From assembly GCA_903865745.1 (NCBI GenBank), contig CAIPKV010000067.1, forward strand, positions 1-38,829: a stretch of DNA of 38,829 nucleotides, in the 5' to 3' direction. The notes under the pieces were generated by a model that searched no databases, had not been told where the DNA came from, and saw nothing but the letters and a program-made list of their open reading frames with translations. Position 1 is the first letter of the stretch, and the number at the start of each line of letters is the position of its first letter. This DNA is from an uncultured Verrucomicrobia subdivision 3 bacterium (GTDB lineage Bacteria > Verrucomicrobiota > Verrucomicrobiia > Limisphaerales > UBA11358). Made by a program: the position numbers and the translations under genes. Shown here one piece after another: positions 7,619-38,829 of this stretch.

Positions 7619-8104
7619 ATGAACAGCACCAACACCTTCATCTTCTATCCGCATATTGCCAACTGGATCGCGTGCATCACCTTCTTCGCGGCCTTTCTGC
7701 TGACCCTGTCGCCCACCGAGAAAAGGGCGAGGGTCGCGGCGGTATTGTTCAGTTTCGGTCTGCTGGCGCGGCTCATCAATCTCGCAGTCCTCAATTTCAG
7801 CGTCGTCACTTCCGGCAGCGATGGTCAGCCGACCAATGTGCATCCCACGATGTCGCTGATCTCCTCCTTCTGGATCATGATCTATGCGATTGCCGCCATC
7901 TGGCTGTTGTTACCGTACCTGCCGCAGACGCGCGCCCTCTTTCTGGGCAAGGTGTTGCATCTCGTGATCCTGCCGCCGCTGGTGCTCTGGCTGTCAGTCG
8001 GCCTGGTGAATCACACCATCACCGTGCTCCCCTACGATCTGACCTGGCTGGTTTACACGCTGCTGTGGTTCCGGATTCGGGAAGCCTACGCGCCCAAAGC
8101 GTAA
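7619..8104 (+). CDS. Small integral membrane protein, hypothetical
   Basis: A 161-residue protein with about five hydrophobic segments (roughly residues 10-30, 40-60, 82-105, 112-132 and 138-152) and short polar loops. It starts at ATG 7619, divergent from the secreted-protein gene. No catalytic or transport motif is recognised. Good hydrophobic patterning and a GC-rich third codon position support it being coding. Family unknown. Confidence 0.65.
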   Translation: MNSTNTFIFYPHIANWIACITFFAAFLLTLSPTEKRARVAAVLFSFGLLARLINLAVLNFSVVTSGSDGQPTNVHPTMSLISSFWIMIYAIAAIWLLLPYLPQTRALFLGKVLHLVILPPLVLWLSVGLVNHTITVLPYDLTWLVYTLLWFRIREAYAPKA

Positions 8105-8286: not shown

Positions 8287-8517
8287 CATTTCCACCGATG
8301 CGGTTGCGATTTCCCCCCATGCGGATGTCATTTCCCCCGTTGCGGAAATCATTTCCCCCGTTGCGGAAATCATTTCTACCGATGCGGAAATGATTTCTGC
8401 CGATGCGGAAACCGCTTCCACCGATGCGATTGTCATTTTTCGCGATGCGGTTGACGTTTCTACCGATGCGGAAATGGTTTTTGCCACTGCGGTTGCAGCA
8501 TTTCCATCGCGCAATAT
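8287..8517. repeat. 21-bp tandem repeat array A (about 11 units)
   Basis: Ten to eleven contiguous units of exactly 21 bp, typified by CATTTCCCCCGTTGCGG plus AAAT. Units 3 and 4 (8329-8349 and 8350-8370) are identical; the others vary mainly at unit ends while the core GATGCGG/GTTGCGG is kept. There is no indel, so phase is held for 210 bp, and units after 8497 are degenerate. Both strands stay open in one frame as seven-residue repeats, but with no convincing start signal. It lies in the 620-bp gap between the membrane-protein gene and dxr. Confidence 0.85.
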
Positions 8518-8570
8518 GGCAATGTCATCGGTATTTATGGCGGGTTTAATGACCAATGACGGAATTCAAC

Positions 8571-8651
8571 GCGAAGTCGCCAAGAAGCCAAGACGCAAAG
8601 GAAGTTCCGTGGTTGAGTCCACTCTGCGCCTTAATGCCTTTGCGCCTTGGC
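8571..8651. repeat. Inverted repeat with octamer-repeat arms
   Basis: The left arm (8571-8602) holds four octamers: GCGAAGTC, GCCAAGAA, GCCAAGAC and GCAAAGGA. The right arm (8620-8651), read on the minus strand, holds GCCAAGGC, GCAAAGGC, ATTAAGGC and GCAGAGTG. Within the arms GCCAAGACGCAAAGG and CCTTTGCGCCTTGGC pair at 14 of 15 positions. It is a small non-coding element downstream of array A. Confidence 0.7.
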
Positions 8652-8678
8652 GTTAAACGTCTTCCCACGGGACCAAAG

Positions 8679-8705
8679 CAAAACGCCCGCAGTCGCCTGC
8701 GGGCG
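8679..8705 (-). terminator. Rho-independent terminator of dxr
   Basis: CGCCCGCAG and CTGCGGGCG form a 9-bp stem around a four-base loop. On the minus strand it is followed by TTTTGCTTT. It lies about 20 bp past the dxr stop. Confidence 0.87.
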
Positions 8706-8724
8706 TGGCATGGCTAAATGGATT

Positions 8725-9870
8725 TTACAGCGCCGCCGCGCGCCGCGCCCAGGCGTCAGCGGCCAAAATCTGTTCCAACGTCGGATGCTCCACGACTTCA
8801 TGCGCGTCCATCGTGCGGCGAACGGTCTCGGTGATTTGCGGGAAGTTGATTTGGCGGTTCACAAAGGCGGCCACGGCCACCTCATTCGCCGCATTGAAAA
8901 CCGCCGGCAACGTTCCGCACGTCTCCCCTGCCCTGCGCGCCAGCAGAATGGACGGGAAGCGTTCGGTATCGGGCTCTTCAAAGGTGAGCGTGCCGAGCTT
9001 GGGAAAACTCGTCTGCACACGGTCGCTCGCCGCGCGCCCGGGATAGGTGAGCGCGTACTGTATGGGCAAACACATGTCCGGCGTGGAAAGTTGTGCGATG
9101 ATGGAGCCGTCCACAAACTCCACCATCGAATGCACAATGCTCTGCGGATGCACGACGACGCCGACGCGCGCCATCTCAATATCAAACAGCCAGCGCGCTT
9201 CGATCATTTCGAGGCCCTTGTTGAACAACGTCGCGGAATCAAGCGTGACCTTCTGGCCCATGACCCACGACGGATGTTTGAGCGCGCGTTCGACGGTGAT
9301 TTCAGCGAATTTTTCCTTGGGCCAAAGTGCTTTATCGCGGAATGGTCCACCGCTCGCGGTGAGGATGAGTTTGCGCACGGATTCCGTCGGCTTCCCATCG
9401 AGACATTGAAAGATGGCGGAGTGTTCGCTATCGACGGCGAGCACTTTGACGCCGTGCTTGCGCGCCTCGGTCATGACGATTTCGCCGGCCATGACGAGAA
9501 TTTCCTTGGACGCGACGGCAATATCCTTGCCCGCACGAATGGCCGCGAGCGCCGGTTGCAGCCCGGCGGTGCCAACGATGGCAATCAGCACGATGTCAGC
9601 GGCGGGCAGTGTGGCGAGCTTGAGCAAACCGTCGTTGCCGCCGTAAACCTGCGTGGACGCGCCGAGGGTGTTCTGGAGTTCCTTGGCCTTCGCCGGGTCG
9701 TTGATGGAGATGACGGCGGGGTGATGTTTGCGCGTTTGTTCGAGCAATAGATCGGCGTTGCCGCCCGCCGCCAGCCCGATGAGGCGAATCTGGTCCGGCA
9801 AATCTTCCGCGACCTTAACGGTGCTGGTGCCGATGGAACCGGTGGAACCAAGGAGAACGACGTTCTTCAT
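8725..9870 (-). CDS. dxr: 1-deoxy-D-xylulose 5-phosphate reductoisomerase
   Basis: The second enzyme of the MEP isoprenoid pathway: NADPH- and Mg/Mn-dependent conversion of DXP to 2-C-methyl-D-erythritol 4-phosphate in the cytosol. The 381 residues are a normal family length. Visible are the Rossmann nucleotide site GSTGSIG (about residues 8-14), ASKEILVMAG, the metal ligands in AVDSEHSA, the flexible-loop region around PSWVMGQKVTLDSATLFNKGLE, and HPQSIVHSMVEF. The ATG at 9870 is preceded by an inverted-repeat arm rather than a Shine-Dalgarno sequence. cdsA lies upstream on the same strand, separated by the four-helix-bundle cassette. Confidence 0.97.
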   Translation of the reverse strand: MKNVVLLGSTGSIGTSTVKVAEDLPDQIRLIGLAAGGNADLLLEQTRKHHPAVISINDPAKAKELQNTLGASTQVYGGNDGLLKLATLPAADIVLIAIVGTAGLQPALAAIRAGKDIAVASKEILVMAGEIVMTEARKHGVKVLAVDSEHSAIFQCLDGKPTESVRKLILTASGGPFRDKALWPKEKFAEITVERALKHPSWVMGQKVTLDSATLFNKGLEMIEARWLFDIEMARVGVVVHPQSIVHSMVEFVDGSIIAQLSTPDMCLPIQYALTYPGRAASDRVQTSFPKLGTLTFEEPDTERFPSILLARRAGETCGTLPAVFNAANEVAVAAFVNRQINFPQITETVRRTMDAHEVVEHPTLEQILAADAWARRAAAL

Positions 9871-9875
9871 TTTTG

Positions 9876-9910
9876 ATTTACGATATACGATTTACGATAT
9901 ACGATTTACG
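9876..9910. repeat. Left inverted arm: heptamer repeat, five units
   Basis: Five contiguous heptamers alternate ATTTACG and ATATACG. The TAA stop of the four-helix-bundle gene (9906-9908, minus) lies in the last unit, and the dxr start follows five bases beyond the first unit. Confidence 0.9.
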
Positions 9911-10293: not shown

Positions 10294-10321
10294 CGTAAAT
10301 CGTATATCGTAAATCGTAAAT
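10294..10321. repeat. Right inverted arm: heptamer repeat, four units
   Basis: Four heptamers CGTAAAT, CGTATAT, CGTAAAT, CGTAAAT, the reverse complement of the left-arm units. The arm ends one base before the cdsA stop triplet. Confidence 0.9.
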
Positions 10322-12133: not shown

Positions 12134-12206
12134 GAATGCTGAATGCTGAATGCTGAAACAAGCCCTGAACGCATCCGGACAAAATGTTTCATCCTTCATG
12201 ATTCTT
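12134..12206. repeat. Inverted heptamer-repeat element between kinase and regulator genes
   Basis: The left arm has three exact GAATGCT units (12134-12154) followed by GAAACA. The right arm (12185-12204), read on the minus strand, gives GAATCAT GAAGGAT GAAACA. The two 20-bp arms agree at 16 of 20 positions. The element fills most of the 93-bp gap between the kinase stop and the regulator start and carries no gene. Confidence 0.6.
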
Positions 12207-15302: not shown

Positions 15303-16538
15303 ATGTCAAAGGATTCACCGGTGCCGCAGAACAAGATTAATCTCCGCCGCCCGGATATCATGGAGGCCGTGCAGGCCCAGGTACTATCGCATTACCGCAG
15401 CGAAATCGTCGAGAGCATCCGCGCCAATGGCGGCATCCTCTCCGCCGATGGCCTGACGGTGAAGCTCGCGAAGGAGTTCGGCTTCTGCTACGGCGTCGAG
15501 CGCGCCATCGATCTCGCCTACGCCGCCAAGAAGTATTTCACCGATGTCTCGCCGCAGACGCCCATCTATCTGCTCGGCGAAATCATCCATAACCCGGAGG
15601 TCAACGACCAGATCCGCAACATGGGCATTCAGATCATTTCGCCCAAGCCGACCGACGAGGAACTGTCGCAACTCCAGTCCGGCGATGCCGTCATCATTCC
15701 CGCTTTCGGCACCGAGGTCAGCACGCGCAAGAAACTTGAAGCCAAAGGCTGCGCGCTCGTGGACACCACCTGCGGCGACGTGATGAGCGTCTGGAAACGC
15801 GTCCGCCAATACTCGAAGGAACACGTCACCAGCATCATCCACGGCAAAGCCAAGCACGAAGAGACCAAGGCCACCACCTCGCAGGCGCGCGCCTATGGCA
15901 GCGGCCATTATCTCGTGGTGTTCAACTTGGCCGAGACCGATTACGTCTGTAATTACATCCTGCAAGGTGGCGACAAGCACGAGTTCCTCGCGAAGTTTGA
16001 AGGCGCGTACTCCGCCGGCTTCGATCCCGATCTGCATTTGCAGGCGGTCGGCGTCGCGAACCAGACCACCATGCTGCGAGGTGAGACGGAAGAAGTGCAG
16101 CGCCGGTTCAAAGCCGTCATGGAGAAGAAATACGGCGTGGACAGCATCGGCAGCCACTTCCGCTTCTTCGATACCATTTGCGGCGCCACGCAGGACCGGC
16201 AGGATGCGCTGGAGAAAATGCTCCTCACGCCGCCCAACCTGCTCATCGTCATCGGCGGCTACAACTCCTCCAACACCTCGCATCTCGCGGAAATGGGCGA
16301 GGCCAAGCTGCCGACCTACTTCATCAAGAATGCCGCCATGATGCAGTCCACCACGGTCATCCGGCATTACGACCAGCATAAGAAGGAGGAAGTCGTGTCG
16401 CAAAACTGGCTGCCCTCCGGCACCCTCACCGTTGGCATTACCGCCGGCGCGAGCTGTCCGAACAATCTCATCGAAGACACCATCCGCCGCCTGTTCGAAC
16501 TGCGCGGCATCTCCGTGGCCGAGCTGTTGAAGAAGTAA
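15303..16538 (+). CDS. ispH: 4-hydroxy-3-methylbut-2-enyl diphosphate reductase (long form)
   Basis: The last enzyme of the MEP pathway: a [4Fe-4S] protein reducing HMBPP to IPP and DMAPP. The 411 residues make this the long form seen in cyanobacteria and plants rather than the ~310-residue E. coli type; it has an N-terminal extension of about 50 residues and an internal insertion. Cluster cysteines are C62 (GFCYGVERA), C157 (DTTCGDV) and C293 (FFDTICGATQDRQ). Other family motifs are IHNPEVN, GYNSSNTSHLAE and the C-terminal GASCPNN, where most homologues have GAST. It starts at ATG 15303, divergent from the sensor kinase. dxr of the same pathway lies 5.4 kb away on the other strand. Confidence 0.95.
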   Translation: MSKDSPVPQNKINLRRPDIMEAVQAQVLSHYRSEIVESIRANGGILSADGLTVKLAKEFGFCYGVERAIDLAYAAKKYFTDVSPQTPIYLLGEIIHNPEVNDQIRNMGIQIISPKPTDEELSQLQSGDAVIIPAFGTEVSTRKKLEAKGCALVDTTCGDVMSVWKRVRQYSKEHVTSIIHGKAKHEETKATTSQARAYGSGHYLVVFNLAETDYVCNYILQGGDKHEFLAKFEGAYSAGFDPDLHLQAVGVANQTTMLRGETEEVQRRFKAVMEKKYGVDSIGSHFRFFDTICGATQDRQDALEKMLLTPPNLLIVIGGYNSSNTSHLAEMGEAKLPTYFIKNAAMMQSTTVIRHYDQHKKEEVVSQNWLPSGTLTVGITAGASCPNNLIEDTIRRLFELRGISVAELLKK

Positions 16539-16551
16539 TGCGACCGTTGGC

Positions 16552-16637
16552 CTGTGACGCGTGACCTGAAAGATTTATTCGCTGTCGGCATGGGCTTCGT
16601 GTCTTGCTGGTCACTCGCCACTCGTCACTTGTCACTC
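16552..16637. repeat. Inverted heptamer-repeat element between ispH and dgt
   Basis: The left arm has two heptamers of the form nnGTGAC (CTGTGAC, GCGTGAC, 16552-16565). The right arm has four inverted units GTCACTC, GCCACTC, GTCACTT, GTCACTC (16610-16637). The arms are separated by 44 bp. It fills the space between the ispH stop and the dgt ATG at 16647 and leaves only nine bases before the start codon. Confidence 0.65.
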
Positions 16638-22317: not shown

Positions 22318-22581
22318 TTTCCTGCCCACAGGGGATGGACACCCTGCCTAGAGGGTGTTGACCTCCTGCCTAGGCTGTGTGGACACCCTGCCCATAGGTG
22401 GTGCACACCCTGCCTAGGGTGTGTCGACCTCCTGCCTAGGGGGTATGGGCACCCTGCCCACAGGTGATGCATACCCTGCCTAGGGGGTGTCGACCTCCTG
22501 CCCACAGGGTACGGGCACCCTCTAGGCGGAGTATGGGCACACTACCCCCAGTGGGTGGATACCCTATGGGCAGGGTGTCCA
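22318..22581. repeat. 22-bp tandem repeat array B (12 units) with 66-bp higher order
   Basis: Twelve contiguous 22-bp units in strict register, typified by CACCCTGCCTAGGGGGTG plus TCGA. Unit types cycle in threes (CACCCTGCCTA, CCTCCTGCCTA, CACCCTGCCCA) at units 2-4 and 5-7 and partly 8-10, giving a 66-bp higher-order period. Most units hold an internal CACCC...GGGTG dyad. Units 10-12 are degenerate. There are no spacers, so it is not a CRISPR. Confidence 0.88.
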
Positions 22582-38437: not shown

Positions 38438-38615
38438 GGATGAACTCTAACACCCGACCATGAAGCCACCGTTAAACTAGCATTAATAAAAATTCATATA
38501 TCAGGGGCGCGATGCGGTCGTCACCGGGTGCTAATTCGCTTTCACCGCCCAGTCGCCCAAGACGCTCAAGCCGTAATCGGCCCCGGAAAAGCCGTTTTGA
38601 CCGATGGGTATGTCC

Positions 38616-38829
38616 CGTTGCGTGATGGAAACGCCTCGTTCCCTCCACGCAACATGACATTCCCTCCACGCTTTGCCTCGTTTCCTGCACGCTATGTGAC
38701 ATTCCCTCCAGGCAACGCCTCATTCCCTCCACGCTATGTGACATTCCCTCCAGGCAACGCCTCATTCCCTCCACGCTTCGTCACAAACGCTGGACGCTTC
38801 GTCACAAACGCTGGACGCTTCGTCACAAA
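38616..38829. repeat. 21-bp tandem repeat array C (10 or more units, runs off the end)
   Basis: Ten contiguous 21-bp units in strict register, typified by CATTCCCTCCACGCTATG plus TGA. Two unit types alternate (ending CTATGTGA and CAACGCCT) at 38700-38762, giving a 42-bp higher-order period. The last two units change to CAAACGCTGGACGCTTCG plus TCA. The array continues beyond the window. Its sequence is unrelated to arrays A and B. Confidence 0.87.

What the first reader, a model, noticed from the sequence alone, without database searches (positions are those of the whole stretch)
38616..38829. 21-bp array C, third unrelated array with near-identical period
Arrays A, B and C have different sequences but periods of 21, 22 and 21 bp, all intergenic and all in strict register within 31 kb. 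A shared process that counts about two helical turns would explain this better than chance. The array is cut by the window edge, so its full length is unknown.
Basis: partly seen in the sequence, partly recalled or inferred. Interest (0 to 1): 0.65.

Follow-up and report, generated by a model that had tools for sequence, protein, structure and literature searches.

The report
Genome-wide 21-bp arrays beside one gene family
This uncultured bacterium carries roughly 180 short stretches of DNA between its genes, each made of about ten copies of a 21-letter unit whose letters differ from place to place while the 21-letter step stays fixed, and in many related species the same kind of array sits just in front of one uncharacterised gene family, which points to an unknown DNA element whose shape matters more than its sequence.

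Summary
Array C is real (38630-38829; it runs off the contig end, and the window is the whole contig). Arrays A (21 bp) and B (22 bp) are real too. TRF finds about 59 arrays with periods 21, 22, 41 or 42, typically ~200 bp, nearly all intergenic.

The arrays are not a pure counting artefact. Homologous copies with conserved flanks occur elsewhere in the genome. Units often have dyad symmetry (29/58, p<=0.05). Indels are about 20 times rarer than in flanking DNA. Period-3 and RNA-wobble signatures are absent.

An array also lies directly upstream of an unannotated ~220-235-aa protein family: all 8 sampled copies here, and 27 of 39 copies in other species of the order (downstream 0/39, control lags 1/39). 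Random DNA from gene-free sister species has none (0/200 kb, against 3/200 kb in gene-rich ones). Paralogous modules keep gene and flanks at 86-92% while the array between them is replaced by another 21-bp array.

Most likely it is a dispersed DNA-level cis-element: dyad sites every two helical turns, recognised mainly by geometry. The binding protein is unknown. I found no description of it in the papers searched.

The parts
38630..38829 (.). Array C: 9.5 units of 21 bp, no indels; two sub-blocks (TTCCCTCCACGC type 38630-38776; ACGCTTCGTCACAAACGCTGG type 38773-38829), cut by the contig end
   Evidence: TRF; register print and simulation
38583..38636 (.). Conserved flank of the array C family, 94-98% identical beside two copies on contig C37 (L026, L027)
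   Evidence: BLAST of flanks
8287..8495 (.). Array A: 10 units of 21 bp (CATTTCCACCGATGCGGAAAT), between convergent genes (window 7619-8104 + and dxr 8725-9870 -)
   Evidence: TRF; genes; register
22321..22521 (.). Array B: 9 units of 22 bp with a 66-bp higher-order unit; relative at L046:11939-12172 (84%)
   Evidence: TRF; BLAST; register

Best explanation
SHOWN: the three arrays belong to a genome-wide class of intergenic arrays. Each has about 6-16 units with a fixed 21-bp step (rarely 22 or 41), often an internal dyad, almost no indels, and unit sequences that turn over much faster than the flanks. In this and many related species an array sits upstream of a gene for an unannotated 220-235-aa protein. 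INFERRED: the array is a duplex-DNA cis-element, a row of dyad sites placed every two helical turns on one face of the helix, bound cooperatively by a dimeric protein that reads spacing, dyad and a loose AA..TTCC-like motif rather than a fixed sequence. It travels with the 220-235-aa gene as a module and also persists or spreads as gene-less copies. Units are homogenised by exchange or duplication in 21-bp steps (hence 42-, 63- and 84-bp higher-order repeats), so a new unit sequence can take over as long as the geometry is kept. Array C is a gene-less copy. The binding protein and the biological output (control of the linked gene, partition/replication-like handling, or transposition) are not identified.
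For: Lag spectrum with peaks only at multiples of 21. About 59 arrays in 1.10 Mb, nearly all between genes. Dyads in 29/58 arrays at p<=0.05 and 20/32 gene-linked ones; DNA folding energy below column-permuted versions, mean z -2.3. Covarying double changes 82 against 51 +/- 4 in shuffles. G.T and A.C mismatches equal, 107:107, on the gene's sense strand, so no RNA wobble signature. Indels 13 bases per 4039 mismatches in arrays against 75 gap openings per 1084 mismatches in flanks. Conservation power at 10.5 bp z 3.8, at 3 bp z -1.7. Weak common motif, information 4.28 against 3.2-3.4 bits in the null. Upstream of the gene family: 27/39 in other species, control lags 1/39, downstream 0/39; 8/8 sampled family copies here, plus the three members of the L050-type subfamily and one gene fragment. 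Random DNA: gene-rich sister genomes 3 arrays/200 kb, gene-free 0/200 kb. Array replacement between conserved flanks: L068/L072 and L207/L228.
Against: No binding protein has been shown. A single sequence-specific protein is hard to reconcile with dozens of different unit sequences in one genome. About half of the arrays, including C, have no significant dyad. The 10.5-bp power may partly reflect smooth conservation. The linked protein has no Pfam, NCBIfam, PHROG, PADLOC or PDB-sequence match. Most arrays here are not next to the gene and occur in convergent as well as divergent gaps, so a simple promoter/operator role cannot cover them all.
Confidence: 0.45

Rival explanations
1. A mutational process alone: slippage or staggered repair in this lineage duplicates DNA in ~21-bp steps (two helical turns) wherever it is tolerated, and the arrays have no function.
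For: Different unit sequences with the same step and 42/63/84-bp higher-order units; arrays sit beside unrelated housekeeping genes.
Against: Array position upstream but never downstream of one gene family across the order, dyad symmetry, a shared weak motif, about 20-fold fewer indels than flanks, and absence in sampled DNA of gene-free sister species.
Confidence: 0.17
2. Tandem operators for the XRE-type helix-turn-helix regulator encoded upstream of some arrays; each array co-evolves with its own regulator and controls the linked gene.
For: HTH_3/HTH_31 genes lie upstream of the array in L028, L207, L211, L228, L213 and L068; dyad sites spaced by two turns fit dimeric HTH proteins.
Against: Found in only 7 of 36 family loci examined, one of them a remnant in L072, and not near most gene-less arrays. 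In genome G014 two modules have near-identical HTH segments (L207, L228) but different array units.
Confidence: 0.12
3. The arrays act as RNA: a chain of small hairpins in the 5' leader of the linked gene or in a non-coding transcript.
For: Dyads and compensatory changes between copies; arrays lie upstream of the gene start.
Against: No excess of G.T over A.C at paired positions on the sense strand (107:107); no Rfam match in the window; RNA hairpins do not need an exact 21-base step, and gene-less arrays lie in all orientations.
Confidence: 0.1
4. Coding repeats: 21 bases encode a seven-residue repeat peptide.
For: 21 is a multiple of 3; slightly more open frames than column-permuted arrays (2.7 against 2.1).
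Against: No period-3 conservation (z -1.7); 22-bp and 41-bp arrays exist; TAG and CTA are depleted on both strands alike; L257 has stops in every frame.
Confidence: 0.02
5. Members of the REP/RAYT (repetitive extragenic palindrome) system.
For: Short palindromic intergenic units in many copies; REPs are reported in another verrucomicrobium, Opitutus terrae (PMC3733652).
Against: REP families have one sequence per genome (own knowledge); here the sequences differ. Y1 transposases do not track the arrays: 2 hits in this array-rich genome, 5-9 in most array-free relatives.
Confidence: 0.03

Closest known systems
Iterons of plasmid replication origins
   Same: Tandem ~17-22-bp direct repeats spaced by two helical turns, often with partial dyads, upstream of a protein gene; array sequence diverges between related elements (own knowledge).
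   Different: Chromosomal, about one per 20 kb; linked gene is no recognisable Rep protein; dozens of different unit sequences in one genome.
REP / BIME sequences with RAYT transposases
   Same: Short intergenic palindromic units in high copy number.
   Different: Not one family consensus; strictly tandem at 21 bp; no correlation with Y1 transposases.
Bacterial minisatellites / VNTRs and heptanucleotide repeats
   Same: Tandem repeats with higher-order units; clean 7-, 8- and 14-bp repeats occur in the same genomes.
   Different: A single fixed period for many unrelated sequences, indel depletion, dyads, linkage to one gene family.
MITEs and other non-autonomous elements with an internal minisatellite
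   Same: Dispersed copies with conserved flanks around a tandem-repeat core.
   Different: No terminal inverted repeats or target-site duplications established; the core is replaced while the flanks stay.

Membership tests
Iteron-type replication origin | Direct repeats of ~17-22 bp spaced by about two helical turns | tested here: met
Iteron-type replication origin | Adjacent replication initiator (Rep) gene | tested here: not met
   Linked family has no Pfam, NCBIfam or PHROG match and no match in the plasmid collection
REP/RAYT | One palindromic consensus repeated across the genome | tested here: not met
   Unit consensuses differ between arrays
REP/RAYT | Associated Y1 transposase copy number tracks the repeats | tested here: not met
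CRISPR array | Identical repeats separated by unique spacers | tested here: not met
   Units are head-to-tail with no spacers
Coding tandem repeat | Period-3 pattern of conservation, open frame | tested here: not met
Structured RNA repeat | Compensatory changes with G.U wobble bias on one strand | tested here: not met
   Compensatory changes present, wobble bias absent
Tandem XRE operators | XRE gene beside the array | tested here: inconclusive
   Present in 7 of 36 loci, one of them a remnant
Tandem XRE operators | Regulator binds the array | not testable with these tools
   Needs a binding assay
MITE | Terminal inverted repeats and target-site duplications | tested here: inconclusive
   Homology between L068 and L072 ends about 5 bp after the stop codon of the gene and about 770 bp upstream of its start; no inverted ends recognised by eye

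The most novel reading that the evidence does not exclude
A dispersed genetic element of the order (Limisphaerales/Pedosphaerales) whose conserved information is mainly geometry: dyads every 21 bp with freely changing sequence, recognised by an as yet unidentified protein, possibly the linked 220-235-aa family itself, in a sequence-relaxed iteron-like system for replication, partition or mobility.
Probability: 0.3. Interest if true: 0.9.

Novelty: categorically new. Interest (0 to 1): 0.78.

Why it matters
Regulatory and mobile DNA is normally recognised by conserved sequence. Here the period, the dyad and the position are kept over many species while the sequence is exchanged, so sequence searches would miss the class and only a periodicity scan sees it. 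It ties a large number of unexplained intergenic arrays to one unannotated protein family, which makes the question of what reads them directly testable.

Tried and rejected
Coding heptad repeats; RNA hairpin chain; REP/RAYT; defence-system proteins (PADLOC); phage or plasmid origin of the linked gene (L044-type protein against plasmids; L050-type against phages and plasmids; PHROGs; the viral-contig scan gave only a 19-residue match); XRE operators as the general answer. Dispersed 80-150-bp repeats in the flanks (e.g. window 8561-8706) were set aside because they also occur away from arrays. Literature searches for 21-bp tandem repeats in Verrucomicrobia, Planctomycetes and Pedosphaera found no description; that library is incomplete. 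Structure prediction was not run: the tool admits only proteins of the window or of loci from the search for related loci/search_dna, and no family member lies in those.

Full report
CHECK OF THE OBSERVATION. TRF finds array C at 38630-38776 (period 21, stronger as 42) and 38773-38829 (21 bp, 100%), array A at 8287-8475 and on to 8495, and array B at 22321-22521 (22 bp, 66-bp higher-order unit). In register, C is nine full units and a partial one with no indel, B is nine units of 22, and A is ten units of 21. Lag scores of 46.5, 41.0 and 26.5 compare with at most 7.0 in 20 Markov-simulated windows. The window is the entire contig C67 of a 3.63-Mb, 87-contig genome, so the cut is an assembly end. 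Contigs C22, C24 and C35 begin inside copies of the same array family.

I took 60 stretches plus the window, 1.10 Mb. The first 20 were partly chosen for matches to the array C motif; the other 40 were not, and those hold about one array per 20 kb, i.e. roughly 180 in the genome (estimate). Counting 63-bp windows with at least 70% identity at a given lag gives 2456 at lag 21, 3481 at 42, 2174 at 63, 2297 at 84, 1359 at 105 and 1098 at 126. Nearly all other lags are zero or a few tens, the exceptions being 14 (110), 41 (329), 66 (221), 82 (240), 83 (150) and 123 (110). TRF tallies 46 arrays of period 21, 8 of 42, 3 of 22 and 2 of 41 among those of at least 60 bp. With a home-made gene caller nearly all lie between genes, in tandem, convergent and divergent gaps alike; one (L061:2798-2876) lies in a well-supported gene.

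LINEAGE. The dxr gene beside array A matches 80 named relatives, nearly all Verrucomicrobia subdivision 3 / Limisphaerales MAGs (best 93% amino-acid identity). Their 1.16 Mb of flanking DNA holds no 21-bp array. Random stretches of same-genus species do hold some: L183 (G009), L188 (G014), L191 (G017).

FAMILIES AND TURNOVER. All-against-all BLAST shows array families with conserved flanks. Array C shares its array and a ~50-bp flank (94-98%) with copies on C37. Four loci (L039, L060, L050, L040) share flanks while their unit sequences differ. L068 and L072 have a 91% identical block of gene and leader and an 86% identical 412-bp block upstream, while the arrays between them are quite different (TCATGGACCATCCGTGAGACC against CCAGCCAGTCATTGGCTGGCG) with the same step. 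L207 and L228 in genome G014 repeat this pattern.

ANATOMY OF THE UNIT. Dyad symmetry exceeds column-permuted versions in 29 of 58 arrays at p<=0.05 (mean z 2.1) and in 20 of 32 gene-linked arrays over many genera (mean z 2.7). Array C itself is not significant (p 0.41). Double compensatory changes number 82 against 51 +/- 4 in shuffles (copies are not independent and the pairs were chosen for pairing). G.T and A.C mismatches are equal, 107:107, on the gene's sense strand, which argues against RNA. Folding energy with DNA parameters is lower than for column-permuted arrays (mean z -2.3). Indels: 61 of 68 arrays have none, and 13 indel bases stand against 4039 mismatches; flanks show 75 gap openings per 1084 mismatches. 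The two counts are measured differently, so the 20-fold figure is approximate. Conservation along the unit has excess power at 21 and 10.5 bp (z 7.2, 3.8) and none at 3 bp (z -1.7). A shared motif is weak but real (4.28 against 3.2-3.4 bits), with GGAA/TTCC and AA most visible.

LINK TO A GENE FAMILY. Seven paralogous ORFs of ~221-235 aa were direct neighbours of arrays, each with the array upstream; an eighth copy also has one. They have no Pfam, NCBIfam, PHROG, PADLOC or PDB-sequence match. A related subfamily (L050 type; profile match over the full length, E 5e-6) has three members and one gene fragment here, all with upstream arrays. In the genus 21 of 49 genomes carry the family, in the order 45 of 293 sampled, patchily over 23 genera. 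Of 39 copies in other species, 27 have a 21/42/63-lag array within 600 bp upstream, against 1 for control lags and 0 downstream (two of the 27 may instead reflect 8- or 14-bp repeats). Ten random 20-kb stretches from gene-rich sister genomes hold three arrays; ten from gene-free ones hold none. Some modules also carry an XRE helix-turn-helix gene upstream of the array, but only 7 of 36 loci, one of them a remnant, so it is not the general reader of the arrays.

MECHANISM. Shown: fixed step, intergenic site, dyads in about half of the arrays, near absence of indels, exchange of the array between conserved flanks, position upstream of one gene family. Inferred: selection acts on DNA geometry (dyad half-sites one turn apart, sites two turns apart), most simply through a cooperatively bound dimeric protein with loose sequence demands, and new unit sequences spread within an array by exchange in steps of 21 bp. 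Unknown: the protein, and whether the output is regulation, replication/partition or mobility. Most arrays here are gene-less, array C included; L062 keeps only a 45-residue remnant of the gene, so at least some gene-less arrays are decayed modules.

NOVELTY. I rate it categorically new because the tested defining features of iterons, REP/RAYT, CRISPR, coding repeats and structured RNA repeats were not all met, and no description was found in the papers searched. That rating would fall to 'new variant of a known kind' if the linked protein proved to be a replication initiator, a partition protein or a known type of transposase.

LIMITS.

Noticed in passing
window 9875-9910, 10294-10321, 12134-12157, 16610-16637: Short 7- and 14-bp tandem repeats (e.g. 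GATTTACGATATAC); clean 7/8/14-bp repeats also lie about 360-660 bp upstream of the linked gene in L212, L219, L230, L233, L238 and L243.
   Followed up: partly
L209, L212, L215, L230, L244, L245 (leader of the linked gene): A second small conserved ORF of about 50-60 aa with the motif DNPNLRWGSPSYLLEPGDPGYV between array and gene.
   Followed up: no
L028:15212-15757, L207, L211, L228, L213, L068:12093-12365: XRE-type HTH genes with a cysteine-rich tail upstream of the array in some modules; degenerate remnant in L072.
   Followed up: partly
L068:12298-12709 and L072:9724-10135; also L024, L036, L050, L079: A dispersed ~135-bp GC-rich quasi-palindrome (GGTAGGG...CCCTACC) beside several arrays.
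   Followed up: no
genomes G123, G131, G010, G115 and others: Many fragments of the linked gene keep only its C-terminal end, more often than only its N-terminal end; could be 5'-truncated copies or just better detectability.
   Followed up: no
window 8561-8706: Dispersed repeat (GCCAAGACGCAAAGG type) downstream of array A, also found near and away from other arrays.
   Followed up: no
L145:948-1043 and 16285-16445: Period-11 tandem arrays in another relative of the order, and a 22-bp array upstream of the linked gene in L249 (G147).
   Followed up: no
G000:C16:16134-16472: One of the two Y1 transposase hits of this genome lies right downstream of the L050-type linked gene.
   Followed up: no
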